Part shown: piece by piece, positions 14,742 to 61,988 of the stretch
How positions within the stretch are numbered: position 1 is the first letter of the stretch
Layout: the number at the start of each line of letters is the position of its first letter
Assembly (NCBI GenBank): GCA_037039685.1
Contig: JAWNGF010000006.1
Coordinates: forward strand, 1,612,001-1,676,000
Reading direction: 5' to 3'
DNA: 64,000 bases
Source of the DNA: Ceratobasidium sp. AG-K
Taxonomy: Eukaryota > Basidiomycota > Agaricomycetes > Cantharellales > Ceratobasidiaceae
Program-made: the position numbers and the translations under genes
The notes under the pieces: model-generated
Databases searched by the model: none
What the model was told of the DNA's origin: nothing
Seen by the model: only the letters and a program-made list of their open reading frames with translations

Positions 14742-16010
14742 ATGCCTGCTGCCTGTTTCTCCAAGGCCAACATCTGCACCACCTGCCAGGCCAATGCCTC
14801 CACCATGGCTTTTGGCTGTGCCCTCTGTCTTGCCAGCCCTGGCATATTTGCAGTCCAAAACTGCAAGACAGTGCCCTGGACCTTCCAGGAGGCCAAAGAA
14901 CTTGCTGAGGTCCTTGACCCTGGCTGTGGACTGGGGTATATCCCCATCAAAACATGAGGACCCCTCAAGTGGGTCAAAGGCTGGAAGTTGATGCAGCACC
15001 CCATAGTTGGGGTGCTCCTTGGGTTGGCAACCCAGAAACCAAGCCCCTCAACCAAGCCACAATCATGTGGAACAAACTGTACACATGCTGGGGCTGCATT
15101 GCCTACACAGTACACAACATGGTCCTCAAACATGCCAACACCTGGAATATCAACACTGGCTACAAGTGGTGTGTGGATGGATTGTGGAAGCAGGTGGACA
15201 ACCCCTGCCTTCACCACAAGGCCAACCAATGGGTGGATGGAGTTGCCTGGATGTGGGCAGAGCTGGACACAGAATCCAGCTGGGATGTCAACATCCCAAA
15301 GCCTGAGCCAGGTATGCCAAACCCCCATATGTCAGACAACTACTCATGGCCTCCATCAACTACAGAAGCCAACAACAAGTGGCCTGCTATTGAGCAGGCC
15401 AAAAGTTGTTGAACAACCTGGGGACCCTCCCCTGCCCCAATCACTGCCCAGCCCCCTTTTGGGGAGCTCCTGCCAGCTGACCCTCCTATGTGGCAGTCCT
15501 CCAGGACCCCTGCTACTCCTACAGTCCCAGTCTCCTCCCCAACAGACAATGACTTGCCCCCCCCCCCCCTCCTAAGATCCCCATGGATCCCTTCCTTTTG
15601 GAATGCCAACTACAAGAGGCAATGGAACAAGCACTAGGACACATTGAACAGCTCCTTAGAGAGGTGGAACAGGACCTTGAAGACACACCCCCTGCCCCAA
15701 CCTGAGACCAAATGCCATGTGATGCCCAGGTCCTTGAGGCTTACAAGGCTGTCCAACAAGGGACTATGTCCCCCAAGGACTTGAAAATTGGTGCAATGTG
15801 CACCAAGAAGAATGGGTCAACCAGGAACAGACCCACCTCATTGAAGGAGAGTGTCAATGCACCCAGGTGCTCCACCACTTGCTCCAACATGAGCAAGAGT
15901 TCAAGCAGGCCAAGTGGGATGCCCATAATGAGTGGCTCAAAGAAGACATAAGGGCACCAGCAGAACAGCAAGGATGGATTGTGATCAAGGAATGGATCAC
16001 ACAAAAGTAG
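14742..16010 (+). pseudogene. Decayed third ORF of an old family B-like element (lineage D)
   Basis: Fragments in different frames match the family B third ORF from end to end. The start reads MPAACFSKA and later VPWTFQEAKELAEVLDPG. The core reads YTCWGCIAYTVHNMVLK with the conserved C-x-G-C. A conserved MPCDAQVLEAY block follows, and the end reads GWIVIKEWITQK against GWLELKEWVARR in B-IV. Frameshifts break it into at least three pieces. Divergence is far greater than between the B copies, so this is an older lineage. A degenerate family B-like LTR follows directly at 16042. Confidence 0.75.
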
Positions 16011-21437: not shown

Positions 21438-22438
21438 CTATCTGCGGGCAACCCATTCCTTCAGTTCCAGCCAGCCGACCCGCTCCGCAAGGTTGCGCAT
21501 GTCTGATTCAAGGACCTCATTCATGTGGTCCCACTTCTCCTGGTAGAGCCGGTCCAGCTCTTCCTGGTGTCGTTGCTGGAGGCGCTCGAGCTCTTGCTGC
21601 TCCCGGAGTGCCCACTGTTCTTGTCAGTGGTTGAGCCACTTGTTGAGTTGGTCAACCGTCCAGGATCCGCACTGGACAAGGCAGTAGGCCTCCAAGATGT
21701 TTGCGTCGCAAGGCATGCGGTCGGTGGGCGGGTGGGGCTCAAGGTTGGCAATTGCCTGCCCGACATTGGCGATGAGGGCCTCGACATTCTCCCAGGCCCT
21801 GTCCCAGGTCGCGTTCCACTCCCGCTCCACTCGCTCTGCCACTTTGTCGGTGATAGGGGGAGGGGGAGGGACATTGATCATCCCCTCCTTGATCTTGCCT
21901 GGTTCCAGGTGGTCGTTGGTGGTGGGCTGGGGCTCGGTTTCTTGAGCTGTCCAGTCGACAATGTTGAAAGGGGGTTCGGGGTAGGTGTTGTCAGCAACTG
22001 GTTGTTCAGGCTTCTTTTGCCACTCACAAGGGGTGGGCCATCCACTGGTGAAGTCATAGGAGCAATTGCTCCACCAGATTCCGTTGGAATCAATGTGTCC
22101 CCCATTGGCCAGGGCGAGGTGGGGGTTGCTTTTGCGTTTGAACCACTTGTCTCCTTCCCACTTGTGGCCAGTGTCCCAGTTCCATGCATTGACGCTCTGG
22201 GTGACCACATCGCGGACAGTGAGTCCGATGCACCCTCGGCAATGGTAGTACTTGCTCCGACCAATGTCGGTCGGATCTGAGGGCCGGGAGTTGGGGTGGC
22301 TGACCCAGAGGAGGGAACCGAGTTGGGGGTGGATGAGGGACTTGCCTTCTTCGTCCCACTTGAGGTTGCCTCGCTTGGCGAGGGGGATGTAGCCGAGGTG
22401 AACCCCAGGCTCAAGATTGTTGGCCAGTTTCCTAGCCT
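21438..22438 (-). pseudogene. ORF3 of B-III, C-terminal part
   Basis: It continues the ORF3 begun at 29868 after removal of A-2 and its CTTTG duplication. The core YYHCRGCIGLTV (C-x-G-C) and the MPCDANILEAY block are present. An in-frame TGA at 21624-21626 replaces CGA of the B-IV copy (CpG to TpG). The remaining 62 codons to the original stop are still readable, including the coiled-coil-like Glu/Gln/Arg-rich end and GWLELKEWVARR. In the other frame the Ser/Thr-rich pol tail also stays readable (21521-22443, one stop). Confidence 0.85.
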
Positions 22439-22443
22439 CTTTG

Positions 22444-22968: not shown

Positions 22969-23730
22969 CTACTGCACCCAGCAGTCCTTGTCAACCTTTT
23001 TGACCAGGGAGTCGAGCTCGTCCTCCTTATCCTCCGTGAGGTCAATGGGGTTGAACACAGTGTTACCTGGTTCATCGCAATGCTCCTCCCACTTCTCCCA
23101 GGTCTTCTCGTCCGTCCAGTCCGCCTTGGACCAGTCCATGACCCTCTCCTGCTCCTCCACATGGTCCTCGTCCCATTGTCGTACGTCCGGCTCGACCTCC
23201 TTCCATTGCGACAAGTCCGCATCCTTCTCCTGCCACCAGAATGGCTTCCATTCGAACTTTTCCCTCTGGTAGCGTCCCCGCTCCATCCTCCAATCCGCCA
23301 AGTCTGCTTTGAAGTTCTTGTCCCATGCGTCGTTCCATCGAGGCCTCAGAGTGGGAGGGTGACCTTTGTATCCTGGGACCCATTCGCTGCTGTAGGCCCC
23401 TTCTTGTCCCCATTCGACCACCCCGAGCTTGTGCATGGATAGTAACACAACTTCGGACACCTGGAAGGCTGCGCATCCTCGGCATACGTAGATGTCTTTT
23501 CGCTGGAGCTGCATGCGTGTTGGCCATTTTTTGCCGACCCATTCGAACTCTCCCAGGTCGGAGTGCAAGATGTCGTCGGAGGCACGGAATTGGAGTCGGC
23601 CTGGGCTCTGCTGGGACCTTTTGAAGATGTAGAGGGTGGCTCCCGAGTCCAGGATGCGAGCCGTCTGGAAGGCAGGCCTGTCGAGAACGTGGACAAGGTT
23701 GTTGGCAATGGTGGCACGGGTGACAGCAGG
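22969..23730 (-). CDS. ORF3 of A-2
   Basis: It starts at the conserved MPAVTR Met and is about 253 residues. It is very close to the A-1 and A-4 products: VCRGC core, Trp-rich second half and CWVQ end. The frame is -1 relative to pol, and it overlaps the pol 3' end by about 385 nt. No lesion was seen. Role unknown; see the A-1 entry for the domain description. Confidence 0.8.
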   Translation of the reverse strand, partial: PAVTRATIANNLVHVLDRPAFQTARILDSGATLYIFKRSQQSPGRLQFRASDDILHSDLGEFEWVGKKWPTRMQLQRKDIYVCRGCAAFQVSEVVLLSMHKLGVVEWGQEGAYSSEWVPGYKGHPPTLRPRWNDAWDKNFKADLADWRMERGRYQREKFEWKPFWWQEKDADLSQWKEVEPDVRQWDEDHVEEQERVMDWSKADWTDEKTWEKWEEHCDEPGNTVFNPIDLTEDKEDELDSLVKKVDKDCWVQ

Positions 23731-26700
23731 CATAGTGTGCAAAAAAGGTTTAGAGCGTTAAGTGTGTAGAGCGAGTTGGAATATGAGCAAGTTCTGCAAG
23801 TTGTGTTGTTGTCCCGTTCGGCCCTCCCTTTAATACTTCTTGTCTTGTAGTTTGACAGTGTTGGGGCGTTTGGGAAATCCTTCAAGAACTTCCTTATTAT
23901 TACTCCGAGGTGACCGAAATCTTCTGCCCGTTGTTCTGTGTCTTCTTTTTCATCATAACCCTTCCATCTAACCCTGTAGAACAACCCGTCCTTTGTTTCC
24001 TTCCAGTCCACGATTTTTTCCACTTCGTATTCTTCCTCTCCTTCTTCCGTTGTGATCGGCGGTGGTCGGGGTTGGTTTCTGTGAAAGTTCTCATCCTTTT
24101 TGTATGGACTAAGAAGATTGCTGTGGAACACAGGGTGTATTCTCATGGTTTTTGGAAGCTCCAATTTGTAGGCGTGGCTTGACATGACTTTCTTGATCTT
24201 GAAAGGACCGCGTTTCTTGTTGTCAAGTTTCTTGTTGGGACGGTTTGTCTTTATGTTTTGTCCGTAAAGCCAGACAAGGTCGTCTTCTTTGTATTTTGGT
24301 TCGTGTTCCACTGTGTCCTTTCTCCTGTGCCATTCCATTGCCGCTTTTGCTTCGTCCCATACTTCCTGCCAGTTGTTTGCTTTCTTATCAGCTTCAGGAA
24401 TTGTGGTAACTTCTGCTGAAACATTTCATAGTGGTTCTCTGCCGTTGATAATCTCGAATGGGGTTTTTCCTGTGATCCCGTGTCGCTGGTTGTTGTAGCA
24501 GAATTCTGCGATAGGAAGTAGTTTGGCCCAGTTGTCTTGCCTGTAGTTAACAAATGTGCAAAGCCATGCTTCTATCCACTGGTTTATCCGTTCCGTTATT
24601 CCATCTGTTTGTGGATGATATGCCGTGCTGAACGTTGGTTTTGTTCCGATTTTTTGGTAGAGGGCCTTCAGGAACTTGCTGTTGAAGGTTGTTCCTCTGT
24701 CCGAAACTGTACTTCGTGGGAAGCCGTGTAACCTCCAAACGTTCTTCAGGAAAAGATCGGCAAGTTGATCTGCAGTTGTTGATTCTTTGCAGGCTATGAA
24801 GTGTGCCATGCGAGAGAATCGATCCACCACCACTAAAATGCTGTCGTTCCCTTGTGATTTTGGAAGTTTTACGATGAAATCGTATGCAATATCCTCCCAT
24901 GGACTGTTCGGGATCTCGAGTGCTTTCAGTGGTACTTGGCTTTTTGCTCCTTTTGCTCTTTGGCACTGCTCACAAGAGTCAACGTATTTGTTTACTGTTG
25001 CTTTAAGTCCAGGCCAGTAGTATTTTCTTGAGATTAGCTCCAGTGTTCGGGCTTGACCCTGGTGCCCTGCCATTGGTGAATCGTGGTGTAATCTGAGGAT
25101 TTTTAGCCTAGTGTCCTTGTCTTCTGGCACGTAGATTCTCCCATCTATCCAGAGCAGGTTTTCCTCGAAGTTGTAGTTCCTGATTCCCTGTTGCACTGAT
25201 TTGGGTAGGGTCTCCTTCTCTTTGCACAATTCTATGATTTTCCTGATGCTTTCATCTTCGGTTTGTGCTTCCCTAATGTCGGCAATGATGTCTGACTTGA
25301 CTTCCCCGGCGAATCCTTTGAACTGTTCCTCCTTGATCATAATTTGCTCTGCTGTTGGTATTTTGCTATGATCCGCTCTTCTGGACAGTAGGTCTGGCTT
25401 TGTTGACATATTCCCCGGACGGTAAACTATTTCAAAGTTGTAGGAAGCCAGGATTTGATGCCATCGAGCGTGACGTCGGTTAAATGTAGTTGCCTTTTTC
25501 CAGTATTGCAGGTTACGGTGATCGGTGTAGATTGTTATCGGTTCTCTTGTTCCTTCTAGATGCAATCGCCAGTGTTTTAGTGATTCCACAATTGCCATCA
25601 ATTCCTTGTCGTGGACATCGTAGTTCATTTGTGCAGCGTTAAAGGATTTTGATAGGAAAGCGATCGGGTGTAAGTAACTGTCGTCTTGTCTTTGAGAAAG
25701 TATCGATCCCATAGCGACGCCGCTTGCATCGGTTTCCAATATGTAAGGTTTTGCTGGATCTGGATGTCGTAGTAGTGGTTCCTTGCATATTTCCTTCTTC
25801 AGGTTATCGAAAGCCTCCTGTTGTTCTGCTTCCCATTTCCATTTCTGATCCTTCCTTGTTAGAACGGTTAACGGTTTCGCCAGGCCGCTGAAGTTTGGTA
25901 CGAATCGCCTGTAAAAATTTGCAAATCCTAGGAAGGCTTGGACCTGTTTGACTGTCCTTGGCTCCTTCCATTCCTTGATTGCCTTGACCTTTTCCTCTTG
26001 CATTGATATCCCCTCCTCACTGATATTTATTCCTGTGTAGACAAGTTTCTTGACAAAGAATTCGCATTTTGGCAGTTTTGCAAAGAGGTTGTTGTCTAAC
26101 AGGATTTTGAGTACCTTTCAAACGTCTTCCACATGCTGGTTTCGGTCTTTGGAGAAAATTAGTATGTCATCGATGTAAACAATGACACAGACGTCAATCA
26201 AGTTGTGGAATATGTGATTCATATATCGTTGGAATGTCGCCGGCGCGTTCTTCAATCCAAAGGGCATGACAACATATTCGAAGAGGCCTTCCTTGGTTCG
26301 GAATGCCGTTTTCCATTCGTCTCCTTCTTTGACTCGGATGTTGTTGAACCCCATATGCAAGTCTATTTTAGAAAAGATTTTTGCGTCCTTGATCTTGTCG
26401 AGGAGATCTTCCATTAGTGGCATAGGGAAGCGGTTGTCCTTTGTTATTTTGTTCATTGGGCCGAAATGTTGAACCAACCTGAGTTCTGGAGGTTTTTCCG
26501 GGTTCTTTGGGTCTAGTCCCTTTTTGACAAAGAAGGTTGCTGCGGCTACTGGTGATTTGCTCGGTCGGATTTTGCCTGCCGCTAGTTCCTCATCTAGGTA
26601 CTTTCTGAGGGCTATGGATTCTGCTGGTGAGAGTGGAATTGGCCTAGCCGGTTTAGGGAGTTCAGCTCCTTCCACCAGATCGATGCAACAGTCGTATGGA

Positions 26701-29212: not shown

Positions 29213-29241
29213 GTTTGTATGTTGTTAAGCTTGTTTTGTAA

Positions 29242-33386: not shown

Positions 33387-33413
33387 GGTGGAGAGACGCC
33401 CATCTAGTTTTCC
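33371..33413 (-). promoter_or_regulatory. Frameshift signal of B-III gag/pol (relic)
   Basis: Minus strand: GGAAAAC (complement at 33407-33413), then TAGAT, then GGGCGTC pairing with GATGCCC (complement at 33371-33377). One base pair has become G-U compared with B-IV. It supports the family B signal described at B-IV. Confidence 0.5.
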
Positions 33414-39498: not shown

Positions 39499-39998
39499 TG
39501 TCGCAACCTGCTAATGCCTATGGTTGACGACCGCTAATGGCCTTTGAGATGTGGAGCAATATGTGATAAGTCTTCTAAGACTCTATCACTAAGGTGGACA
39601 AACGCTAGTCTTGTCAGTACAAGTCACTAGCTCCTAAGTCCAAGTGGCTGCGCTAAAGGCTAAGTAGCCAAGTGCCTCTGATCACACTGCAGGGAGAGTT
39701 GACGAGGCGAAGCAAGCTGGGGATGACCATGCTTGCAAGCCAGTATATATACTCAAAAAACAAGTGAGTCATAGTACACGCATGAGTCACTTGTCTGAGT
39801 CAAAGTCCGAGTCATAAGGGGGGCTGCGCAGGCCAGCCAATAGAAAAACAGCATGAGTCATACAGCTCATGGTAACACGTCATCCATACACCTCACTAAG
39901 CGAGGGAGAGGGCACATCTATACAGAAGAGGCGCTTAAGGCGCCGATGCAAGCCACGAGTCCGCAGAAAAGAGAGAGAGGGAGGGACAGGTCACGACA
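39499..39998 (-). repeat. 3' LTR of B-IV (500 bp)
   Basis: On the plus strand it reads TGTCGCAACC to GGTCACGACA. Four exact TGAGTCA sites and a CCAAT-type box lie upstream of the TATA box. The start motif complement GCGAAGCAAGCT is at 39707-39718. Confidence 0.96.
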
Positions 39999-40038: not shown

Positions 40039-41091
40039 CTATCTGCGGGCGACCCATTCCTTCAATTCCAGCCAGCCAACACGTTCTGCCAGGTTTCGCA
40101 TGTCCGTTTCGAGGACCTCGTTCATGCGATCCCATTTTTCTTGGTAGAGCTTGTCAAGCTCCTCCTGGTGCCGTTGTTGGAGGCGCTCGAGTTCTTGCTG
40201 CTCGCGGAGTGCCCATTGCTCCTGTCGATGGTCGAGCCATTTGTTGAGCTGGTCAACCGACCAGGATCCGCACTGGACGAGGCGGTAGGCCTCCAGGACG
40301 TTGGCGTCGCAAGGCATGCGATCCGCTGGTGGATGGGGCTCGAGCTTGGCAATTGCCTGGCCGACATCGGCGATGAGGGCCTCGACATTCTCCCGCGCCC
40401 TGTCCCAGGTCGCGTTCCACTCCCGTTCGACTCGTTCGGCGTCTTCGTTGGAGATGGCAGGAGGGGGGGGAAAATCGACTGTTTCCTCCTTGATTTTGCC
40501 TGGCTCCAATGGTCCGTCGGTTTCGTCGGCGCAGGGGGCGGGCCAACCGCTGGTGAAATCGTAGGAGCAATCGCTCCACCAGATCCCGTCGTCGTCGACG
40601 TGTCCCCCATTGGCCAGGGCAATGCGGGGATCAGTTTCGCGTTTGAACCACTTGTCACCTTCCCATTTGAAGCCAGTGTCCCGGTTCCAGGCGTCCACGC
40701 TTTTGAGGACAACGTCATGGACGGTGAGTCCAATACAACCACGGCAGTGGTAGTATTTGTTGCGGCCGATGTTGGTGGGGTCGGAAGGCCGAGATTCAGG
40801 GTGGCTGACCCAGAGGAGGGAGCCAAGGCGGGGTATGATGAGGGACTTGCGTTGTCCGTCCCATTTGATGGTTGCCCGCTCTCGCAGGGGTATGTACCCC
40901 AACTGGACGCCGGGCTCAAGGGCCTCCGCAAGTGCCTTGGCCTCGTTGAGGGACCAGGGGGCAGTGTCCCGGTTGTTGACGGCAAACTCCCCTGGTCCGG
41001 CAAGCTTGATGGCCTTCTTGTAGGCCCTAACCTGCTTGTAAGCGGGTACCCGGGAGAAGGCGGGGACGGCAGCGGTGCGAGCGGCAGGCAT
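40039..41091 (-). CDS. ORF3 of B-IV, 350 residues, unknown function
   Basis: Start chosen at MPAARTA, equivalent to MPATRTA in B-II; the frame is open a further 84 codons upstream. Features: a basic Ala-rich N-terminus, an APWSLNEAKALAEALEPG segment, a central YYHCRGCIGLTV with C-x-G-C, then WNRDTGFKWEGDKWF, and an acidic Pro-rich linker. A C-terminal helix rich in Glu/Gln/Arg (about residues 270-350, coiled-coil-like) ends GWLELKEWVARR. It lies in the -1 frame of pol and overlaps it by 970 nt, almost its full length. The core aligns with the family A ORF3 (YVCRGCAAFQVSEVVLLS), so the two are probably homologous. No transmembrane segment is visible. Confidence 0.8.
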   Translation of the reverse strand: MPAARTAAVPAFSRVPAYKQVRAYKKAIKLAGPGEFAVNNRDTAPWSLNEAKALAEALEPGVQLGYIPLRERATIKWDGQRKSLIIPRLGSLLWVSHPESRPSDPTNIGRNKYYHCRGCIGLTVHDVVLKSVDAWNRDTGFKWEGDKWFKRETDPRIALANGGHVDDDGIWWSDCSYDFTSGWPAPCADETDGPLEPGKIKEETVDFPPPPAISNEDAERVEREWNATWDRARENVEALIADVGQAIAKLEPHPPADRMPCDANVLEAYRLVQCGSWSVDQLNKWLDHRQEQWALREQQELERLQQRHQEELDKLYQEKWDRMNEVLETDMRNLAERVGWLELKEWVARR

Positions 41092-44000
41092 TGTTGGTTG
41101 TATAAAGAGGTGGTTTTTGTGGTGGGAGAGGTGCTTTGCAGTGAACAAGTAGATGTAGGCAGTAGAGCTGGAGTGATAATTTCTGCGGCTTTCCCTCTTG
41201 TCCTTTTGTACTCTGAGGGGGTGAAATTTGGAGGGAGTGGACCGTTGGGAAAGTCCTTCTGGAACTTTCTCATGACATGAGTCAGTTCGGCAAAGTTCTC
41301 TGCCGGTTCTTCTGTGTCTTCCAGGGGGCTGTAGCCCTTCCATCTGATGCGATATTTCAGCCCATCAGGATCTTGGTGCCAATCTACAATCTTCTCTACT
41401 TCATATTCTTCCTCGCCTTCTTCAGTAATGATCGGCGGAGGTCGGGGTTGGTTTCGTTGGAAGTCTAGGTCTTCAGTATAGGAGGTCAACATATTTCCAT
41501 GCAAGACGTTGTGGATGCGCATGGATTTTGGAAGATCAAGTTGGTAGGCATGTGAAGAGATTTGTTTCTTCACAACAAAGGGGCCCGTTTTCTTGTCATC
41601 AAGCTTCTTGCTTGGGCGTCTTGTGGAAATGTTGGTAGTCAGGAGCCAGACGTTGTCCCCTTCCTTGTATTGTGCCTTTGGGGTTTCTTCCTTTGACTGA
41701 TGGTATTCCATCAGAGCTTTTGTTTCTTCCCACACAGCCTCCATATCCTTTGTCCATTTGTCTCCCTCTGGGGAGCGAGTCACATAGTCCTCAATAGACC
41801 ATTTGGGAGTCATACCATAGATGACCTCAAAGGGGGATTTGTTTGTGACTCGGTTCTTGTGATTGTTGTGGCAAAATTCCGCGATCGGTAGCCATTTTGC
41901 CCAGTCATCTTGTTTGTAATTTCCAAAGATGCGTATCCATCCTTCAAGCCACTGGTTCGTTCTTTCTACCAGGCCATCAGTTTCAGGGTGGAAGGCGGTA
42001 GAGAAAGTTCCTTGGATTCCTAGCCGCTTGTAGACAGCTTCCAAGAAGTGTGATTTGAAGGTGGTCCCTCTATCTGACACAGTGGTTTTGGGGAACCCAT
42101 GAAGGCGCCATATCTCTTTCACAAAGATATCGGCTAGCTCTTCTGAGTTTGTCGATTCCTTGCAGGGGATGAAGTGTGCCATTCTGGAAAAGCGGTCCAT
42201 CACAACAAGGACACTATCGAATCCTTGTGATTTTGGTAGCTTCACTATGAAATCATATGCGATATTTTCCCAAGGTTTCTCTGGAATGGGCAAGGGTTTG
42301 AGTGGTAAGTGTCCTTTGCTTCCCTTCCCCCTTTGGCACGCTTTGCAACTGTCAACGTACTTGTTGACTTGGGCCTTCATACCTGGCCAGTAGTAGTTTC
42401 TAGAAATGAGTTCTAGAGTTCTGGCTTGTCCTTGGTGACCCGCAATGGGCAAATCATGGTAGAGTTTGAGAAGTTTCAGTTTGATGTCTTTTTCGTCAGG
42501 AACAACGATTCTCCCTTGGTACCAGAGGAGATCTTCATTCATTTCATAGTCCTTGAACTGCTTTCTCACAGAGGGTGGTAGGCCTTCCTTTCCTTTGGTG
42601 CTTTTGATCAGTGTTTCCAGGCTTTCATCCTCTTCCAGGGCTTCTTTGATCTCCGCGATGATGTTGTTGCTCATCAGGGCTGAAAATCCCTTGAAGTTTT
42701 CGGTGGAGATCATCACTTGTTCAGCGGAGGCAATATCGTTGTGATCGCTTCTTCTTGAGAGGATGTCCGGTTTTTCCGACATCTTGCCAGGTCTATAGTG
42801 GATCTCAAAATTGTAGCTTGCCAGCATGAGAAGCCATCTGTTGTGTCGTCTGTTGAAGGTGCTGGCCTTCTGCCAGTAAGTAAGGTTCTTGTGGTCGGTG
42901 TAGATCACTATTGGTTCCCTTGTTCCTTCAAGGTGGATGCGCCAGTGTCGTAGTGCTTCTATGATAGCAAGGAGTTCCTTGTCATGTGTGTCGTAGTTCA
43001 GTTCTGCTTCCTTGAAGCTTCTTGAGAGAAACCCTACTGGGTGTAGGTATCCGTCCTTTTGTCGTTGGCTGAGTATAGCTCCCATTGCAACCCCTGAGGC
43101 ATCTGTTTCGAGGAAGTATTGTTTTGATTCGTCAGGATGTGCCAGTACTGGCTCTTTTGAAATGACATCTTTCAGGGAATCAAAGGCTTCTTGGTGTTCG
43201 GAATTCCATTCCCACTTCCTGTCCTTTCTTGTCAATTGGGTCAGGGGTTTGACAATCGAAGAGAAGGCCACTACAAATCTTCTATAGAAGTTGCAGAAAC
43301 CAATGAATGCCTGTAGTTGTTTCACGGTTTTCGGGATGGGCCATTCTTGGATAGTTCTGATCTTGTCCTTGTTCATGGAAATGCCGTTTTCATCGACAAC
43401 GAACCCAACCCAGTCGGCCCTCTTTCCATAGAAGGTACACTTCTTCAAATTTCCAAAAAGGTTGTTCTTCCTCAATCTTTGCAGGACCTCCTTGATATCG
43501 ATGGTGTGCTGATCTCTTCCTCGGGAAATAATAAGGATGTCATCAATGTAGATCACAATCTTCACTCCAATCATGTCCCTGAAGATGTGGTCCATCATTC
43601 TCTGGAAAGTAGATGGTGCATTCTTGAGGCCAAAGGCCATCACAGTGTACTCGAAAAGTCCTTCTGAGGTGATAAATGCCGTTTTCCATTCGTCTCCTTC
43701 TCTGATCCTGACGTTCCAGAAGCCGTTCTTCAGGTCAAGCGAAGTGATGAAAAGTTCTTCCTTTGAACTTCCTCCAGTCTTCTTGAAGATCTCTAGGAGT
43801 TGTTCAAGAAGTGGAATTGGATATCGGTCTGGGATGGTTTCCTCGTTTGCTCCTCTGTAGTCAACAACAGGACGTAGGTCAGGGATGGTCTGTCCTTCCT
43901 TCAGGGCTTTCTTGACGAAGAACAGGCTTGCAGCAAGAGGAGATTTGCTGGGTCTGATACGTCCTGAGCGGAGTTCATTCTCGATATATTCCTTTGTTGC

Positions 44001-44606
44001 TTCTCTTTCCCTTGGTGAGAGAGGGTAGGCCTTTTTTGGTTTTGGAAGCCGACTGTTGTCATAGAAATCGATTCTACAATCCCATTCTCTGTGTTCTGGG
44101 AGCTTGTCGTACTTTTCTTCGTCAAAAACATCCTTGAATTCTTCAAGTTCCTTTGGTAGTTCCTGGAGGAGCCCTGCCTTGGCGATCAAAGGGTCCTCTG
44201 TTTTCCATTTGATAGCAAAGGGGGACCATAATATTTCAGGGTTGGTCTCCTTCAGCCATGGCATTCCTAAGATCATGGGTTGTGTGCCAGTATTCATGAC
44301 GTAGAACTTTTGGCAAAAAGTTCTTCCCTCTAGATCAAACTTCAGTTTGCACCTGAATTGGATCTGATCCCTTTGTGTTTTTCCATCAATAGTTTCAATG
44401 CTTCTGGGAGTTTGTAATTTGGTCAAAGGGATGTTGTTTTCCTTGGCAAACCTCAGGTCGATGAAGTTTCTGGAAGAACCGGAGTCGATGAGAGTTGAGA
44501 TTTTTTCCGTGATTCCCTCTGCAGTTGTGTATACCATGGGTGTTTCATTTGTGGCCTTGCAATAGTATACATTTCTCAGAGGGGATATCGGGGCATCCTC
44601 ACACAC
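40122..44606 (-). CDS. pol: Pol polyprotein of B-IV
   Basis: The first usable codon is a GTG (VCEDAP) in the -1 frame after gag; no ATG, so frameshift expression is likely. Approximate residue positions: protease DSG 41-43; RT motif A Asp 291 and YIDD 353-356; RNase H from TDASG 501; integrase zinc motif H717, H724, C754, C757; DDE core D785, D845, E881; chromodomain about 1067-1106. From about 1150 to 1494 a Ser/Thr/Pro-rich tail overlaps ORF3. It may be a real domain or a by-product of ORF3 constraint. All catalytic residues are present and no stop interrupts it. Confidence 0.93.
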   Translation of the reverse strand: MCEDAPISPLRNVYYCKATNETPMVYTTAEGITEKISTLIDSGSSRNFIDLRFAKENNIPLTKLQTPRSIETIDGKTQRDQIQFRCKLKFDLEGRTFCQKFYVMNTGTQPMILGMPWLKETNPEILWSPFAIKWKTEDPLIAKAGLLQELPKELEEFKDVFDEEKYDKLPEHREWDCRIDFYDNSRLPKPKKAYPLSPREREATKEYIENELRSGRIRPSKSPLAASLFFVKKALKEGQTIPDLRPVVDYRGANEETIPDRYPIPLLEQLLEIFKKTGGSSKEELFITSLDLKNGFWNVRIREGDEWKTAFITSEGLFEYTVMAFGLKNAPSTFQRMMDHIFRDMIGVKIVIYIDDILIISRGRDQHTIDIKEVLQRLRKNNLFGNLKKCTFYGKRADWVGFVVDENGISMNKDKIRTIQEWPIPKTVKQLQAFIGFCNFYRRFVVAFSSIVKPLTQLTRKDRKWEWNSEHQEAFDSLKDVISKEPVLAHPDESKQYFLETDASGVAMGAILSQRQKDGYLHPVGFLSRSFKEAELNYDTHDKELLAIIEALRHWRIHLEGTREPIVIYTDHKNLTYWQKASTFNRRHNRWLLMLASYNFEIHYRPGKMSEKPDILSRRSDHNDIASAEQVMISTENFKGFSALMSNNIIAEIKEALEEDESLETLIKSTKGKEGLPPSVRKQFKDYEMNEDLLWYQGRIVVPDEKDIKLKLLKLYHDLPIAGHQGQARTLELISRNYYWPGMKAQVNKYVDSCKACQRGKGSKGHLPLKPLPIPEKPWENIAYDFIVKLPKSQGFDSVLVVMDRFSRMAHFIPCKESTNSEELADIFVKEIWRLHGFPKTTVSDRGTTFKSHFLEAVYKRLGIQGTFSTAFHPETDGLVERTNQWLEGWIRIFGNYKQDDWAKWLPIAEFCHNNHKNRVTNKSPFEVIYGMTPKWSIEDYVTRSPEGDKWTKDMEAVWEETKALMEYHQSKEETPKAQYKEGDNVWLLTTNISTRRPSKKLDDKKTGPFVVKKQISSHAYQLDLPKSMRIHNVLHGNMLTSYTEDLDFQRNQPRPPPIITEEGEEEYEVEKIVDWHQDPDGLKYRIRWKGYSPLEDTEEPAENFAELTHVMRKFQKDFPNGPLPPNFTPSEYKRTRGKAAEIITPALLPTSTCSLQSTSPTTKTTSLYNQQCLPLAPLPSPPSPGYPLTSRLGPTRRPSSLPDQGSLPSTTGTLPPGPSTRPRHLRRPLSPASSWGTYPCESGQPSNGTDNASPSSYPALAPSSGSATLNLGLPTPPTSAATNTTTAVVVLDSPSMTLSSKAWTPGTGTLASNGKVTSGSNAKLIPALPWPMGDTSTTTGSGGAIAPTISPAVGPPPAPTKPTDHWSQAKSRRKQSIFPPLLPSPTKTPNESNGSGTRPGTGRGRMSRPSSPMSARQLPSSSPIHQRIACLATPTSWRPTASSSADPGRLTSSTNGSTIDRSNGHSASSKNSSASNNGTRRSLTSSTKKNGIA

Positions 44607-44633
44607 GGTGGAGAGATGCCCATCTAGTTTTCC
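44591..44633 (-). promoter_or_regulatory. Predicted -1 frameshift signal, B-IV gag/pol
   Basis: Minus strand: G GAA AAC (complement at 44627-44633) immediately before the gag TAG, spacer TAGAT (5 nt), then GGGCATC (44615-44621) pairing with GATGCCC (44591-44597). The heptamer is not a perfect XXX-YYY type (GGA instead of GGG), but MMTV pro-pol uses a GGA-type first triplet. The stem differs from family A while position and spacing are the same. Confidence 0.6.
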
Positions 44634-46795
44634 GACTCGGAATCCGTGGATCCGTTGTCATTCACTTCCTCAACTTTGAGTTCAGCGGCTCTTCCTTTCA
44701 CAGGTTTCTTCCCCTTGTCCTTGTAGGTCCATTCCTTTGTGCAGTCAGCAAGGTTGTGACCTGCATCCCCACATTTGATGCAGAGGTTGTTTTCTCTTCG
44801 GCGTTTCTTTTCTTCCTTTGGGACAAGATCCCCCTTGATTTTCTGGGTCTTGGAACCTTCTACTTGAACTGGTTGTTCGCTTTTCTTCCTTGTGCTAACC
44901 GGATTGGTCAGTTTGTTGATTTCCTCTGCTTGCAGGGCGATATTGATCCATCCCTCAAGATCTCGTTGTTGGGCTCCTGCTCTATCTCTGAGTTCCTCAC
45001 GAACGAGCTCTGCTTTGATGAAGCGGCTCAGGCCTTGTCTGAATCGTGCCGCTAGGGCCGCATCGTTCCAGTCGAGTTCCTGGGAAAGAAGTCGGAAGTC
45101 TGATACATATTCAGATACGCTCTTGTTTTGGTAGAGTCGTTGGATCCCTTGTTCAGCTTGAACCTTTTTGCTGGGATCGCTCCATTGCCTGTTGTAGGCT
45201 TCTTGAAAAGCTTCCCATGAATCTAGCCAGGGGTGGTCTAGATTGTCGTTGTACCTATTGAGAACCGGCTGTGCCCAGTTTCCAGCAGGACCTTCTGCCA
45301 TGTTCATCAATACTGCTATAATGCGTCGTTCATCCGTGTCGTACTGGGTAGGGTTCAATCGGAAGTAAGCTTTCATTCTTGCAAGAAAGGTTTCGGCTGC
45401 TGTTCCCCTGGATCCTTCAAAAGCTTTTGGCATTTTGATGCGTGGTCCTGAGTTTCCTCCGTTGCCTCCTTGGTTCGTTTGGAAGATAAAGGTTCTTCCT
45501 TCATCCCTGATTTGATATCCTGATTGTCCTTGCACCTCAAATGAGGGTGATCGTCGTCCTTGTGGTGGAAGATGAGGAGGTGGTTCTCTTCGTTGTGGGA
45601 TCTCGATGGAAGTTCGTCGTGATTCTTCTCTTCGGTGTTCGGATTCTGCTTGGGCGTCAGCCCCAATTTGCTCGAGAAGGTCAAATGTTTCCCTAGTTCG
45701 TAGGCGAACTTCTTGCATCCTAGTGGTTTGATCCTGAAATCCATCAGTAACTTCCTCATTGATTCTTCCAAGGGTGCTGGTCATGTTTCTCATTCCTTCT
45801 GCCATTCTTCCCAAGGTTTCTTCAATGCGTGTAATACGCTGGGTTTGTCCTTGCAGGGTTTGGTTCATCCGAAGATCGAAATTGTTCAACCTGTTGTTGA
45901 TTTGTTCGGAATTTTCAACCGATTGTTCGAAGATTTCAAGGATCCGGTGTTGAACGCGATCCACATTCCTAAGCCTTTCATAGAAGGTGTTGACTCCGTC
46001 TTCTGTTCTAGACGCAATGCGCTCAATTCGCTGCATCATGTTTGTCGTGTCCTGGTTTTGTAGATCACATCGTCGTTCCATCCCTTCGATTCTAAGGGCT
46101 TGGACTGCGTTCTCCTGTTGATATTGAATTTGAAGGGTGTTGAAGATCCTTTCCAGAGCTTGGATTGGATTTCCCTCCATGTTTTCCATCAGTCGTTCTT
46201 GCCTCAGTCCCTCATCTTGTGAAATAGACTCAACACTTCCTTGTGATTGGAAGGTTGATGGCACGCTCAGGGCGCTGTGAGACCTGGGAACTTCCACAAG
46301 TTGTGGCATGGATGCAGGGGTAGCTATTGGGGGTGGAAATTGCATTTTGAAGTTGGGGAATGCTAAAGGACGTCTTGTCCCTGTTGTTCCGGTGTTTGAT
46401 GGACCCGGGGTTGCATTTCTAAGCGGTCCTGGTATCCTAATCATACGCACAGCCCTAGGGCTAATCACACTCTCCCCATGGAGAGTGACGATTGGAGCTG
46501 CTGGTGGTGGCGTATTGATTGGATTTTCGACTATTCGAACTGTTGGTGAAGTGGATCCTTGCTTGTTTGAAATCCTGGTTTCTTCTTGAGTTCCTGATGT
46601 TTCGATAATGTTGCCGATTCCTCCTGGGACGCTGGTGGAAGGGGGTCTTGACGCGCGGCTACCACTTCTAAGTGGTGCTGTCCAATCACCTGCCCGTTCC
46701 CTTGCTCCTCTTGAGGGGTTTGATCGGATTTCGACTATTGTCGCTATTGGAGCCTCGCTCCTTTGAGACGCTGCACTTGAGGATCGATTGTCCAT
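44624..46795 (-). CDS. gag: Gag of B-IV
   Basis: 723 residues, MDNRSSS start, 57 nt after the LTR. The N-terminal third is Pro/Ser/Thr-rich. About residues 200-380 form long helices with heptad character (MERRCDLQNQDTTNMMQRIE and later repeats). The capsid domain is about 440-600 (AAETFLARMKAYF, WDSWEAFQEAY). The CCHC knuckle C-IK-C-GDAG-H-NLAD-C is near residue 675. It forms the particle and packages RNA. Intact. Confidence 0.93.
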   Translation of the reverse strand: MDNRSSSAASQRSEAPIATIVEIRSNPSRGARERAGDWTAPLRSGSRASRPPSTSVPGGIGNIIETSGTQEETRISNKQGSTSPTVRIVENPINTPPPAAPIVTLHGESVISPRAVRMIRIPGPLRNATPGPSNTGTTGTRRPLAFPNFKMQFPPPIATPASMPQLVEVPRSHSALSVPSTFQSQGSVESISQDEGLRQERLMENMEGNPIQALERIFNTLQIQYQQENAVQALRIEGMERRCDLQNQDTTNMMQRIERIASRTEDGVNTFYERLRNVDRVQHRILEIFEQSVENSEQINNRLNNFDLRMNQTLQGQTQRITRIEETLGRMAEGMRNMTSTLGRINEEVTDGFQDQTTRMQEVRLRTRETFDLLEQIGADAQAESEHRREESRRTSIEIPQRREPPPHLPPQGRRSPSFEVQGQSGYQIRDEGRTFIFQTNQGGNGGNSGPRIKMPKAFEGSRGTAAETFLARMKAYFRLNPTQYDTDERRIIAVLMNMAEGPAGNWAQPVLNRYNDNLDHPWLDSWEAFQEAYNRQWSDPSKKVQAEQGIQRLYQNKSVSEYVSDFRLLSQELDWNDAALAARFRQGLSRFIKAELVREELRDRAGAQQRDLEGWINIALQAEEINKLTNPVSTRKKSEQPVQVEGSKTQKIKGDLVPKEEKKRRRENNLCIKCGDAGHNLADCTKEWTYKDKGKKPVKGRAAELKVEEVNDNGSTDSESEN

Positions 46796-46852: not shown

Positions 46853-47352
46853 TGTCGCAACCTGCTAATGCCTATGGTTGACGACCGCTAATGGCCTTTG
46901 AGATGTGGAGCAATATGTGATAAGTCTTCTAAGACTCTATCACTAAGGTGGACAAACGCTAGTCTTGTCAGTACAAGTCACTAGCTCCTAAGTCCAAGTG
47001 GCTGCGCTAAAGGCTAAGTAGCCAAGTGCCTCTGATCACACTGCAGGGAGAGTTGACGAGGCGAAGCAAGCTGGGGATGACCATGCTTGCAAGCCAGTAT
47101 ATATACTCAAAAAACAAGTGAGTCATAGTACACGCATGAGTCACTTGTCTGAGTCAAAGTCCGAGTCATAAGGGGGGCTGCACAGGCCAGCCAATAGAAA
47201 AACAGCATGAGTCATACAGCTCATGGTAACACGTCATCCATACACCTCACTAAGCGAGGGAGAGGGCACATCTATACAGAAGAGGCGCTTAAGGCGCCGA
47301 TGCAAGCCACGAGTCCGCAGAAAAGAGAGAGAGGGAGGGACAGGTCACGACA
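46853..47352 (-). repeat. 5' LTR of B-IV (500 bp)
   Basis: It matches the 3' LTR except for one base seen by eye (GCTGCACAGG against GCTGCGCAGG). The start motif complement is at 47061-47072. As the 5' LTR it should provide the promoter, firing toward lower coordinates. Confidence 0.96.
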
Positions 47353-47357: not shown

Positions 47358-49259
47358 ACCCTACAACACAGCGCGAAAGATTATGATTTCAAGGAGGGGC
47401 TATTATGGTTCAAGGGAAGGATTTACGTGCCAGAAGATAGGGAGTCCAGACTGGCCATCATGCGAATTCATCACGACTCAAAAATCGCAGGACATCAAGG
47501 ACAGGCTAGAACACTGGAACTAATATCAAGAAGATACTTCTGGCCAGGGATGAAACAAAGCATAAACAGATACGTGGAATCATGTGAGACCTGCCAACGG
47601 ACAAAGGGATCGAAATCTATAGTCCCGATCAAGCCTCTGGAAATTCCAAAAGGACCGTGGGAAGATATAGCATTTGACTTCGTAGTGAAGTTACCAAAAT
47701 CCAAGGGATCAGATAGCATCTTAGTAGTGGTGGACCGATTCTCAAGAATGGCGCACTTCATACCCTGCAAAGAATCTCACACGGCAAGCGACCTCGCAAG
47801 TCTTTTTATCACAAATGTTTGGAAACTGCACGGTTTTCCAAAGAGCACTATCTCAGACCGAGGAACTACTTTCAATTCCAGACTTATGAAAGCCATTTAT
47901 GAGAAAATTGGAACTAGCCCAGGTTTCAGTACTGCCTACCACCCCCAAACAGATGGAATAACGGAGAGAATCAATCAATGGATGGAAGGTTGGCTACGAT
48001 TGTTCGTCAACTACCGGCAGGACGATTGGGCGGACTTGTTACCAATTGCAGAATTTAGCTATAATCTACAGAAGCACCGCGTAACGGGTAGTTCCCCCTT
48101 CGAAATCGTATACGGAAGGGAACCACTGTGGAACATCTCAACAGAAGAATCAGCGGTTCCAGAAGCAAACAACATCACAGGAAAATGGCGTGAAATCCGG
48201 GACAAAGCAATTGCATCAATGGAAACCCAAAGACTCCCAGAAGAAGATCCGAAGAACGAGTACCAAGAAGGAGATCTAGTTTGGCTGCTGGGAAAGAACA
48301 TCCAGACAAAGAGACCATCAAAGAAACTGGATAACAAAAAGCACGGGCCATTTGTCGTAAAGCGACAGATAGGGTCACACGCTTATGAGCTTGATTTGCC
48401 GGCAACAATGAGGGTGCACCCTGTTTTCCACATCAATCTGTTGAGCCCTTACAAAGGAGACACTGAATTCAGCCGTAACCAACCCCGACCACCGCCAATC
48501 ATAACAGAAGAAGGAGAGGAAGAATATGAAGTAGAGAAGATTTTGGATTGGAAAGAGACAAAGGACGGTCTTTTTTACAGGGTCAGATGGAAGGGGTATG
48601 GAAGTGAAGAAGACACGGAACAAAGGGCGGAAGATTTTGGTCACCTTTCAAAGATTATCAAGGACCTTCTACGCCGACACCCCGAAGCTCCCACGCCATC
48701 TAACTACGCTCCAGGAAAGATAAAAGGCAGAAGGGGCGAAACCAGTAGCGTCACTTGCAATACTTGCATCTACTCCAAGCTTCACCCATCGCTCAACTCC
48801 CTAAATCTTTTCTGCTCCCTACAATGCCTGCCGTCACCCGCTCCACCATCACCAACAACCTCACCCGCGTCCTCAAAGGACCTGCCTTCGCCACGGCAAG
48901 GATCCTCGACTCCGGAGCTGCCCTCTATGTCTTCAAGAGGTCGCAACAAGGCTCTGGAAGGATGCACTTCAGGGCCTCGGACAATATCCTCCACTCAGAC
49001 CTGGGCGAATTCCAGTGGGTCGGGAAAAAATGGCCGACACGCATGCAGCTCCTACGAAAGGACATATTCGTCTGTCGAGGGTGCGCCGCTTTCCAGGTCT
49101 CGGAGGTCGTCCTCCTCTCCACCCACATGCTCGGAGTGGTCGAATGGGGACAAGAAGGAGCGTACTCGAGCGAGTGGGTACCAGGGTATGACGGAAGGCA
49201 GCCAACGCTCCGACCTAGATGGAACGATGCCTGGGACGCCAACTACGAGAGGGACTTGA
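47358..49259 (+). pseudogene. pol: Pol of A-3, C-terminal part (integrase, chromodomain)
   Basis: It resumes in frame after the duplicated CAAAG (LPK before, TLQHSAKDYDF after). Integrase HHCC (HHDSKIAGHQ to CETCQR), the DDE residues (DFVVKLP, SDRG, TDGITE) and the chromodomain (EYEVEKILDWKETKD) are all present. The last 145 codons overlap ORF3. This half shows no lesion. Confidence 0.92.
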
Positions 49260-49588
49260 GCGACTGGAAGCTGGAAAGGGGAAGGTACCAGAGGGAGAAG
49301 TTCGAGTGGGCGCCTAACTGGTGGAAGTGGGAAGAAGCGGACGTTTCAGCATGGAAGGAAACGGAGCCAGACGTGCGACAATGGGACGAGGAGTTTGTGG
49401 AAGCCCAGGAAAGGGTTTTGGACTGGTCCAAGGCGGACTGGACGAGGGAAGAAACTTGGGAGGAATGGGAGAAGTTCTCGGACAAACCGGGAAATACCGT
49501 CTTCAATCCCATCAACCTGACCTTGGAGGAGGAGGAGGGGTTGGAGGAGTATATGCTGAAGAAGGAAAAGGACTGTGCGGTGCAGTAG
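48824..49588 (+). CDS. ORF3 of A-3
   Basis: 254 residues from MPAVTRS. It differs from A-1/A-2/A-4 at many positions but keeps YVFKRSQQ, the F-VCRGCAAFQVSEVVLLS core, GQEGAYSSEWVPGY, the Trp-rich half and an acidic end (here DCAVQ). It is in the -1 frame of pol with a 436-nt overlap. Conservation at this divergence argues for selection on the protein. Confidence 0.8.
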   Translation: MPAVTRSTITNNLTRVLKGPAFATARILDSGAALYVFKRSQQGSGRMHFRASDNILHSDLGEFQWVGKKWPTRMQLLRKDIFVCRGCAAFQVSEVVLLSTHMLGVVEWGQEGAYSSEWVPGYDGRQPTLRPRWNDAWDANYERDLSDWKLERGRYQREKFEWAPNWWKWEEADVSAWKETEPDVRQWDEEFVEAQERVLDWSKADWTREETWEEWEKFSDKPGNTVFNPINLTLEEEEGLEEYMLKKEKDCAVQ

Positions 49589-56800: not shown

Positions 56801-58000
56801 AGACAATGTCTGGCTCTTGACTACCAACATCACCACAAGATGCCCAAGCAAGAAGCTTGATGACAAAAAGACAGGTCCCTTTATTGTGAAAAAACAAATC
56901 TCTTCACATGCCTACCAACTTGATCTTCCAAAGTCCATGCGCATCCACAATGTCTTCCATGGAAATATGTCGACCCCCTATACTGAAGATCTAGACTTCC
57001 AGCGCAATCAGCCCTGACCCCCACCTATCCTGACTGAAGAAGGCGAGGAGGAATATGAAGTAGAGAAGATTATAGATTGGCATCAGGACCCTGATGGGCT
57101 GAAATACCACATCAGATGGAAGGGCTATAGCCCTCTGGAAGACACAGAAGAACTGGTGGAGAATTTTGCCAAACTGACTCATGTCATGAGAAGATTCCAG
57201 AAGGACTTTCCCACCGGCCCACTTCCTCCAAATTTCACTTCCTCAGAGTACAAAAAGGCAAAGGGGAAAGCAGCAGAAATCATCACTCAAGCTTTCCAGC
57301 CAACTACTACCAGCACTTTGCAGAAAAGCTTTCTCACTACAAAACACACTTCCTTACCCCACCTACAATGCCTGCCACTCGCACTGCCGCCACCGCCGCT
57401 TTCTCCCGGGTCCCTGACTACAGGAAGGCTAGGGCCTACGGAAAGGCCCTCAAGCTTGCCGGACCAGGCAAGTTTGCTGTCAACAACCGGGACACCGCTC
57501 CCTGGTCCCTCAACAAGGCCAAGGCTCTTGCTGAGGCCCTTGAGCCCGGCGTCCAGTTGGGGTATATCTCCCTACAAGAGCAAGCAACAATCAAGTGGGA
57601 CAAACAGCACAGGTCCCTCATTACCCCTTGCCTTGGCTCCCTCCTCGGGGTCAGCCACCCCAACTCCAGGCCTTCCAATCCCACTGACATTGGCTGCAGC
57701 AAGTACTACCACTGCCAGGGTTGTATTGGGCTCACCGTCCACAACATTGTCCTCAAGAGTGCAGATGCCTGGAACCGGGACACCGGTTTCAAATGGGAAG
57801 GAGACAAGTGGTTCAAGCAGGAAAATGACCCTTGCCTGGCCCTCAACAACGGCGGACATTGCGATGAGGAGGGGAAGTGGTGGCGCCCATGTGCCACAGA
57901 CTTTGAGTCAGGATGGCCAACGGAGTGTGAGTTTGAACAAATACCTGGCCCTACAAAAACTTACCCAAGAGACAATCCCCCCTTCAACGCTATTGATTGG
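53854..58000 (+). pseudogene. pol: Pol of B-II
   Basis: A one-base deletion near 53955 shifts the frame in protease, and the catalytic Asp codon reads AAC (Asn). RT (YIDD), RNase H, HHCC and DDE are readable in the long open part 54033-56609. TGA at 56607-56609 and again at 57015-57017 replace CGA codons. The chromodomain follows, then the Ser/Thr tail overlapping ORF3 up to the solo LTR. Confidence 0.9.
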
Positions 58001-61223: not shown

Positions 61224-61988
61224 CTACTGCACCCAGCAGTCCTTGTCAACCTTTTCTACCAGGGAGTCAACCTCGTCCTCCTCTCCCTCCGTGAGATCGA
61301 TGGGGTTGAACACAGTGTTACCTGGTTCGTCGCAGTGCTCCTCCCACCTTTCCCAGGTTTTCTCGTCCGTCCAATCCGCCTTGGACCAGTCCAGGACCCT
61401 CTCCTGTTCCTCAACGTGGTCCTTATCCCATTGTCGTATGTCCGGTTCGACTTCCTTCCATTCCGACAAGTCCGCCTCCTTCTCCTGCCACCAGAACGGC
61501 CTCCATTCGAATTTCTCCCTTTGGTAGCGTCCCCTTTCCATCCTCCAATCCGCCAAGTCTGCCTCGAAGTTTTTGTCCCACGCATCAGTCCATCGAGGCC
61601 TTAGAGTGGGAGGACGGCCTTCGTATCCTGGAACCCATTCGCTGCTGTAGGCCCCTTCTTGTCCCCATTCGACCACCCCGAGCTTGTGCATGGATAGCAG
61701 CACGGCTTCGGACACTTGGAGAGCTGCGCATCCTCGGCATACGTAGATGTCTTTTCGCTGGAGCTGCATGCGTGTTGGCCATTTTTTGCCAACCCATTCG
61801 AACTCTCCCAGGTCGGAGTGCAGGATGTCGTCAGAGGCGCGGAATTGGAGCCGCCCTGGGCTCTGCTGGGACCTTTTGAAGACGTAAAGGGCTGCCCCCG
61901 AGTCAAGGATGCGGGCTGTATGGAAGGCTGGCCCGTCGAGAACGCGGACAAGGTTGTTGGTGATGGTTGCACGGGTAACGGCGGGCAT
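61224..61988 (-). CDS. ORF3 of A-4
   Basis: 254 residues from MPAVTR, with VCRGCAALQVSEAVLLS, the Trp-rich half and the CWVQ end. In the -1 frame of pol, overlapping it by about 390 nt. No lesion. Confidence 0.8.
   Translation of the reverse strand: MPAVTRATITNNLVRVLDGPAFHTARILDSGAALYVFKRSQQSPGRLQFRASDDILHSDLGEFEWVGKKWPTRMQLQRKDIYVCRGCAALQVSEAVLLSMHKLGVVEWGQEGAYSSEWVPGYEGRPPTLRPRWTDAWDKNFEADLADWRMERGRYQREKFEWRPFWWQEKEADLSEWKEVEPDIRQWDKDHVEEQERVLDWSKADWTDEKTWERWEEHCDEPGNTVFNPIDLTEGEEDEVDSLVEKVDKDCWVQ

What the first reader, a model, noticed from the sequence alone, without database searches (positions are those of the whole stretch)
40039..41091. A conserved, unrecognised third ORF with a C-x-G-C core in two retrotransposon families and an old relic
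Seven elements in the window carry a protein-coding ORF between the pol domains and the polypurine tract: A-1 2608-3372, A-2 22969-23730, A-3 48824-49588, A-4 61224-61988, B-III (split), B-IV 40039-41091 and B-II 57368-59013. A decayed copy lies at 14742-16010. Family A and B products are very different, yet share Y-x-C-x-G-C-x4-V-x3-VL in the middle. That suggests one ancestral gene kept through the split of the families. There is no signal peptide or membrane helix, so it is not an obvious envelope. The Trp-rich (A) and coiled-coil (B) second halves suggest a binding or assembly role. Established: most chromoviruses encode only gag and pol. I do not recognise this protein.
Basis: partly seen in the sequence, partly recalled or inferred. 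Interest (0 to 1): 0.88.

Follow-up and report, generated by a model that had tools for sequence, protein, structure and literature searches.

The report
Conserved third gene in fungal retrotransposons
Three related families of LTR retrotransposons in one (likely fungal) genome carry a third gene that overlaps the end of the polymerase gene and matches no known protein family in the libraries searched; selection preserves its protein in the two families tested, in one about as strictly as the integrase, and it likely makes a helper protein for the element's RNA or particles.

Summary
The ORF is real and coding. Four A copies (254 codons) and B-IV (350 codons) are intact in the window; B-II is broken, B-III is split by a nested A element, and the relic belongs to a third family, C. 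Across the genome, dN/dS in the ORF3 frame is 0.10 in A (20 intact copies) and 0.18 in B (13); the integrase-chromodomain region of 12 A copies gives 0.09, and shifted frames exceed 1.2. A, B and C share a core of about 80 residues around C-x-G-C (profile score 51 against at most 26 in 200 shuffles). No significant Pfam, NCBIfam, PHROGs or PDB match; 5.8 billion proteins gave four hits, all A- or B-type. No membrane segment. New here: ORF3 starts inside pol, in the -1 frame, behind a conserved ATG and a G-poor leader; in B the pol frame stays open to 83 nt before the ORF3 stop in 16 of 18 copies. The role is inferred: an accessory protein, made from its own mRNA, acting on the element's RNA or particles, as CERV does for Cer1. 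A 2010 survey already drew an unnamed 'add. ORF' in some fungal elements, hence a new variant of a known kind.

The parts
40039..41091 (-). B-IV ORF3, 350 codons, intact; core with C-R-G-C, linker, predicted C-terminal helices
40122..41091 (-). stretch where the B-IV pol frame (ORF3 +1) and ORF3 are both open; the pol stop lies 83 nt before the ORF3 stop
41092..41161 (-). 70-nt G-poor leader before the ORF3 start (mean of ten B1 copies 7% G, against 24% further upstream; nearest upstream ATG at least 176 nt away in those ten)
41256..41405 (-). chromodomain of B-IV pol (PF00385, pol residues 1068-1117)
40122..44606 (-). B-IV pol ORF: protease, RT, RNase H, integrase, chromodomain, then a long tail in the frame overlapping ORF3
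44624..46795 (-). B-IV gag (PF03732, PF19259)
39499..39798 (-). 300 nt of the 3' LTR of B-IV (100% identical to the 5' LTR)
46853..47152 (-). 300 nt of the 5' LTR of B-IV
2608..3372 (+). A-1 ORF3, 254 codons, intact; the pol frame overlaps it to 2995
22969..23733 (-). A-2 ORF3, 254 codons, intact
48824..49588 (+). A-3 ORF3, 254 codons, intact (76% identical to A-1)
61224..61988 (-). A-4 ORF3, 254 codons, intact
57368..57988 (+). B-II ORF3, open 5' part; the rest to 59013 is interrupted and carries stops
21627..22208 (-). 3' piece of the B-III ORF3, cut off by the nested A-2 element
14954..15409 (+). open core of a decayed family-C ORF3

Best explanation
ORF3 is a third protein-coding gene of chromodomain LTR retrotransposons, shared by three related families in this likely fungal genome and held by purifying selection in the two families tested, and it likely encodes an accessory protein that would be translated from its own subgenomic mRNA and is predicted to bind and gather the element's RNA or particles. 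Shown: the coding frame and the selection in A and B, homology of the A, B and C cores, linkage to gag-pol, a conserved ATG (MPA in 28 of 30 A loci; MPA in 10 and MAP in 17 of 27 B loci that include the start; MPA in C), a G-poor leader, and a -1 frame overlap with pol. Inferred: the separate mRNA (spliced or from an internal promoter), since the ATG lies kilobases into the genomic RNA and inside an open pol frame. Inferred: the cysteine core binds the ligand (RNA is the first guess) and the C-terminal helices of B and C oligomerise, by analogy with CERV of Cer1, which gathers on genomic RNA and is needed for its nuclear export. Inferred: in B the pol frame is kept open across ORF3 so that the pol stop lies near the RNA's 3' end, which would spare genomic RNA nonsense-mediated decay.
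For: dN/dS: A ORF3 median 0.099, IQR 0.083-0.124, 20 intact copies, 190 pairs, shifted frames 1.54 and 2.05; B ORF3 0.182 in 13 intact copies, on gapless codons 0.162 against 1.27 and 1.76 in shifted frames; A integrase-chromodomain yardstick 0.088 in 12 of 20 intact A copies, those with an open pol flank. Homology of families. Co-inheritance with pol: Mantel r 0.82 in 26 A copies (0 of 999 permutations reach it) and 0.35 in 20 B copies (4 of 999). Linkage: 28 of 40 B gag leaders have an ORF3 5.4-6.5 kb downstream; all 58 ORF3 loci examined have pol sequence upstream. Start; G is 6-8% in the 70 nt before it in all four groups, against 23-26% further upstream. No membrane segment by hydropathy. 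Between families ORF3 diverges like gag (27% identity), not like pol (62%). Pol frame open: 16 of 18 intact B copies have the first pol-frame stop exactly 83 nt before the ORF3 stop, and 1 of 265 synonymous variants creates a pol-frame stop against 16.2 expected (P 2e-4 and 3e-3 in the two blocks), while the third frame shows no deficit (30 of 265 against 35.8). Analogy to CERV: PMC10309623, abstract and section 15.
Against: No homologue with a known function was found. The A model is useless (pLDDT 33); in the B model residues 60-138, which hold the cysteines, are mostly below 50, so RNA binding and any fold are guesses. Only one C-x-x-C pair is shared, too few for a classical zinc finger. 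No splice acceptor or branch site is conserved across families, and none near the ATG in A; none of 58 loci lacks pol upstream and no gag leader lies within 4.6 kb of an ORF3, so no spliced retrocopy was seen. The C-terminal halves of A and B are not alignable, so one shared function is not certain. dN/dS was not measured for C. Pol-frame openness is not significant in A (2 of 105 against 2.9), and the same test gave one unexpected depletion in a control frame (B pol frame +2, 3 of 140 against 12.1, P 0.0015). The simpler permutation test also showed depletion in the part of A beyond the pol stop (11 against 51), so it is not specific. The pol tail's amino acids are not conserved.
Confidence: 0.4

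Rival explanations
1. ORF3 is expressed as a C-terminal extension of Pol, through -1 ribosomal frameshifting or splicing from the chromodomain into ORF3, so the functional product would be a Pol-ORF3 fusion.
For: ORF3 is in the -1 frame of pol and both frames are open over a long overlap. A gene model recorded as Globodera pallida (P0002) joins a chromodomain directly to a B-type ORF3. In B the pol frame seems kept free of stops.
Against: ATG with MPA/MAP and a G-poor leader recur in all groups, which a fusion would not need. No donor of the simple pattern used is conserved within 260 nt upstream. P0002 is a gene prediction on a record of another organism.
Confidence: 0.2
2. ORF3 is a particle or assembly factor (a Gag partner) with no role in RNA export; its helices would build or load the capsid.
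For: Predicted long helices in the B C-terminus; between-family divergence like that of gag.
Against: Nothing links it to Gag directly; the A C-terminus is Trp-rich and acidic and not alignable to B.
Confidence: 0.25
3. ORF3 is an integration-targeting or chromatin partner that works with the chromodomain next to it.
For: It follows the end of pol in the loci examined. The A C-terminus keeps P-I-(D/N)-L-T before acidic residues in 13 of 13 aligned sequences, which resembles a SUMO-interacting motif (recalled, not tested).
Against: No domain match; that motif is not seen in the B and C sequences aligned.
Confidence: 0.12
4. ORF3 is an envelope-like gene, a relic of an infectious form.
For: Position between pol and the 3' LTR.
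Against: No membrane segment: highest 19-residue hydropathy 1.32, 0.78 and 0.79 in A, B and C.
Confidence: 0.02
5. ORF3 is a chance open frame in the 3' part of a repeated element.
For: None beyond its overlap with the open pol frame.
Against: dN/dS 0.10 and 0.18 in its own frame and above 1.2 in the others.
Confidence: 0.01

Closest known systems
Additional ORF ('add. ORF') of fungal Gypsy elements, 2010 survey (PMC2864245; passages and Figure 3 legend seen)
   Same: An extra ORF of unknown function in full-length fungal Gypsy elements; it may be the same gene.
   Different: No sequence, element name or family relation could be read; no selection, overlap or homology analysis appeared in the passages seen.
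CERV of Cer1, a C. elegans LTR retrotransposon (PMC10309623; abstract and section 15 seen)
   Same: A non-gag, non-pol gene of an LTR retrotransposon with no similarity to known retroviral proteins, with essential invariant cysteines and self-assembly.
   Different: CERV is a large protein with three structured domains and a shown role in genomic RNA export, made from a spliced mRNA; no sequence comparison was made here, and no role or splicing is shown for ORF3.
ORF3s of bdelloid rotifer LTR retrotransposons (PMC5408684; passages seen)
   Same: A varied third ORF beside gag and pol, often not envelope, said to be expressed from spliced messages.
   Different: Several of those are recognisable enzymes or membrane proteins; this one matches nothing, and it is shared by the three families found here.
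brtn, the additional gene of Boty-like elements of Botrytis (PMC8365987; passages and a reference title seen)
   Same: An additional ORF in a fungal Gypsy element.
   Different: brtn is antisense according to the cited title; ORF3 is sense.

Membership tests
Chromovirus (Ty3/gypsy with chromodomain) | gag, then protease-RT-RNase H-integrase-chromodomain in this order | tested here: met
   B-IV pol: RVP_2, RVT_1, RT_RNaseH, Integrase_H2C2, rve, Chromo; gag: Retrotrans_gag
Chromovirus (Ty3/gypsy with chromodomain) | flanking LTRs | tested here: met
   A-2 and B-IV pairs of 300 nt, 99% and 100% identical
Retroviral envelope | signal peptide and membrane-spanning segment | tested here: not met
   Kyte-Doolittle maxima 1.32, 0.78, 0.79 over 19 residues; no dedicated predictor was available
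CERV-like RNA export protein | sequence homology to CERV | not tested
   no CERV sequence was compared
CERV-like RNA export protein | expression from a spliced mRNA | tested here: inconclusive
   no acceptor conserved across families; conserved YAG near the ATG only within groups (e.g. -76 in B1, -46 in B2, -84 in C) and none nearer than -190 in A
CERV-like RNA export protein | binds or gathers genomic RNA, needed for export | not testable with these tools
   needs experiment
Captured host or viral domain of known family | match to a curated family or solved structure | tested here: not met
   Pfam (weak hits below cut-offs only, apart from the chromodomain part of P0002); NCBIfam 83; PHROGs 84; PDB sequences 5, 58 (best E 0.17); Foldseek 62 (core of low confidence, so weak)
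'add. ORF' of PMC2864245 | sequence identity with that ORF | not testable with these tools
   figure and supplement not readable here; legend only

The most novel reading that the evidence does not exclude
A fungal retrotransposon lineage carries its own RNA-export or RNA-gathering regulator, a Rev or CERV of fungi, written in the -1 frame inside the 3' end of pol, with both frames under selection: ORF3 for its protein and pol for staying open so that the genomic RNA escapes decay.
Probability: 0.15. Interest if true: 0.8.

Novelty: new variant of a known kind. Interest (0 to 1): 0.56.

Why it matters
Fungal Gypsy elements are mostly described with one or two ORFs, gag and pol (PMC2864245, passage). 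Here three related families keep a third one, in the A family about as strictly as the integrase, yet it is in no family library searched and has only four entries in a collection of 5.8 billion proteins, perhaps because it overlaps pol. If the inferred role holds, an accessory gene is basic to a fungal element lineage, and it becomes testable how such elements handle an RNA that must be exported, translated in overlapping frames and packaged.

Tried and rejected
Structure: two AlphaFold jobs (and 35/49) on alignments of 12 and 11 sequences. B reached mean pLDDT 55 (confident only at about 151-170 and in the C-terminal helices), A 33. Foldseek against PDB with the B model gave no match better than E 0.74, most of the listed hits being helical; nothing was drawn from it.

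Distant relatives: three protein searches gave only P0001-P0004; two scans of viral contigs found none (each used one or two short peptide patterns). The protein searches consider only candidates of 0.55-1.75 times the query length, so ORF3 inside long Pol gene models would have been missed. No search for a host-gene ancestor was conclusive, because element copies fill the own-genome lists.

Splicing: a conserved acceptor, branch site or donor was sought in the 260 nt before the ATG, and copies lacking gag-pol were sought by leader-ORF3 spacing and in 58 loci; none was found, so splicing stays inferred. In one search I compared 40 gag leaders with 62 typed ORF3 places (one of them twice) chosen from the longer list; one of the 28 spacings at 5.4-6.5 kb (C5) was measured to a C-terminal piece. 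The other 12 of 40 (5 at 6.5-20 kb, 1 at 4.6 kb, 6 beyond 20 kb or none) are an upper bound for leaders without a near ORF3. The matching A leader list was not compared.

Amino-acid constraint on the pol tail was looked for and rejected: dN/dS in that frame is above 1, identity is 0.62 against 0.80 for ORF3 from the same bases in B, and its Ser/Thr/Pro/Gly richness (median 0.56) is close to what ORF3 constraint alone gives (0.54).

Rows dropped: three of 30 A loci missed my motif filter, and copies with stops or another length were left out (20 of 28 kept, A-3 of the window included); two of 30 B loci were not recognised and 13 of 28 were kept as intact; searches used 18 B copies, because the ORF was re-read from its ATG; the control used 17 A and 17 B copies with open pol. 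One search was spoiled by unturned minus-strand loci and was replaced.

Full report
Setting. The window is 64 kb of a 53.6 Mb genome in 17 contigs. It holds many Ty3/gypsy elements and a Plavaka transposase (PF18759); a basidiomycete fungus is likely (inference; the Plavaka link to mushrooms is recalled). B-IV is complete: identical 300-nt LTR stretches, gag, pol with protease, RT, RNase H, integrase and chromodomain, then ORF3, ending about 240 nt before the 3' LTR.

A-1 to A-4 and B-IV carry intact ORF3s of 254 and 350 codons. B-II is broken after about 207 codons, B-III is split by the nested element A-2, and the relic at 14954-15409 belongs to a third family, C, with 56-70% identical relatives elsewhere. 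Five of the eight stretches fetched are C; two of these five have an ORF of more than 360 codons starting MPA, the others are broken.

It codes for protein. Among 20 intact A copies the median dN/dS in the ORF3 frame is 0.099, in shifted frames 1.54 and 2.05. Among 13 intact B copies it is 0.182 (0.162 on gapless codons, against 1.27 and 1.76 shifted). The integrase-chromodomain stretch of 12 A copies gives 0.088, so in A ORF3 is held about as strictly as integrase; B has no such yardstick here, and C was not measured. In the own-genome list 106 of 149 A copies have no in-frame stop; 39 of the 43 with stops include TGA (counted by eye).

The families share one ancestor gene. BLASTP A-3 against B-IV gives E=3e-4 over 83 colinear residues, A against C 1.5e-6 and B against C 1e-50. 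Profiles of 17 B/C and 13 A sequences align with probability 90.8% and score 51.3, against a maximum of 25.7 in 200 column shuffles. The shared part is about 80 residues ending in ...Y-x-C-R-G-C...V-V-L-x-S; B and C also share parts of the C-terminal half, which A does not align to. Between A and B, pol is 62% identical, gag 27%, and the ORF3 core 25-34%, so ORF3 diverges like gag. Within families ORF3 distances follow pol distances (Mantel r 0.82 in A, 0.35 in B), which argues for descent with the element, less firmly in B.

It is an orphan. No significant match in Pfam (weak hits below the cut-offs, and the chromodomain part of P0002), NCBIfam, PHROGs or PDB sequences (58, best E 0.17). Of 5.8 billion proteins only four match: three from JGI records on contigs of 906-983 bases, and P0002, labelled Globodera pallida, which joins a chromodomain to a B-type ORF3 in one gene model. 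Two viral contig scans gave none.

Layout and expression. ORF3 begins inside pol in the -1 frame. In the A, B1 and B2 copies the pol frame has no stop in the 250 nt before the ORF3 ATG, and it runs on into ORF3: in the 30 A loci a stop stands at +385 in all (26 have no earlier one; A-3 of the window, not among the 30, stops at +433), and in B the first stop lies exactly 83 nt before the ORF3 stop in 16 of 18 intact copies. In B, 1 of 265 synonymous ORF3 variants creates a pol-frame stop, against 16.2 expected (two blocks, P 2e-4 and 3e-3), while the third frame shows 30 against 35.8; pol's own +1 frame shows no deficit (A 20 of 255 against 6.9; B 4 of 140 against 3.2). Against this, A shows no significant deficit (2 of 105 against 2.9) and one control frame was unexpectedly depleted (B pol +2, 3 of 140 against 12.1) (all). 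I take the B result as fairly good evidence that pol is kept open, not as proof. The pol tail's amino acids themselves are not conserved.

The ATG recurs with MPA in 28 of 30 A loci and with MPA (10) or MAP (17) in the 27 B loci that include the start. The 70 nt before it hold 6-8% G against 23-26% further up, in all four groups, and the median distance to the nearest upstream ATG is 127-182 nt by group, the smallest being 25 in one A copy. That looks like the leader of a separate mRNA. No splice signal is conserved across the families, and no copy with gag-pol spliced out was seen. The separate mRNA is therefore inferred, and splicing and an internal promoter are both open.

Function. No membrane segment by hydropathy. 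The B model is confident only in a short stretch (about 151-170) and in the C-terminal helices, not at the cysteines; the A model is not usable. The best-supported reading is an accessory protein working on the element's own RNA or particles. The nearest worked-out analogue is CERV of Cer1, with no known retroviral relatives, essential invariant cysteines and self-assembly, required for genomic RNA export (PMC10309623, abstract and section 15). This is analogy, not homology. A Gag partner, a Pol fusion and a chromatin or integration partner remain open. The idea that an open pol frame spares the RNA nonsense-mediated decay is mine and untested.

Novelty. [quoted passage not shown] In ten paper searches, judged by titles, abstract starts and the passages opened, nothing describing this protein family, its selection or its overlap with pol was seen; the library holds open-licence papers only. 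Term searches inside a fungal LTR survey (PMC3248453) and a Laccaria transposon paper (PMC3411680) turned up no such ORF. Hence: new variant of a known kind.

Noticed in passing
window 6044-7309 (-): A Plavaka transposase (PF18759, E 8e-53), with another open frame at 7551-8483 beside it.
   Followed up: partly
window 22444-29541 inside 21624-34861: Element A-2 has inserted into the ORF3 of B-III, splitting it; a nested insertion.
   Followed up: partly
own genome, A copies: 39 of 43 A copies with in-frame stops include TGA; this would fit C-to-T decay at CGA codons (not tested).
   Followed up: no
P0002: A protein recorded as Globodera pallida joins a chromodomain to a B-type ORF3 at 75% identity; fungal contamination of that assembly is a likely cause.
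   Followed up: no
window 40122-41091 and 2608-2995: The pol frame stays open over ORF3 with stop positions shared by copies; in B stops seem avoided.
   Followed up: yes
window 49508-49522 (A-3 ORF3 C-terminus): The 13 aligned A sequences keep P-I-(D/N)-L-T before acidic residues, resembling a SUMO-interacting motif (recalled, untested).
   Followed up: no
window 58000-58390: The DNA inserted in the B-II ORF3 shares, by eye in the translations, a stretch with the open frame at 4371-4823 (-), so it may be a piece of another repeat.
   Followed up: no
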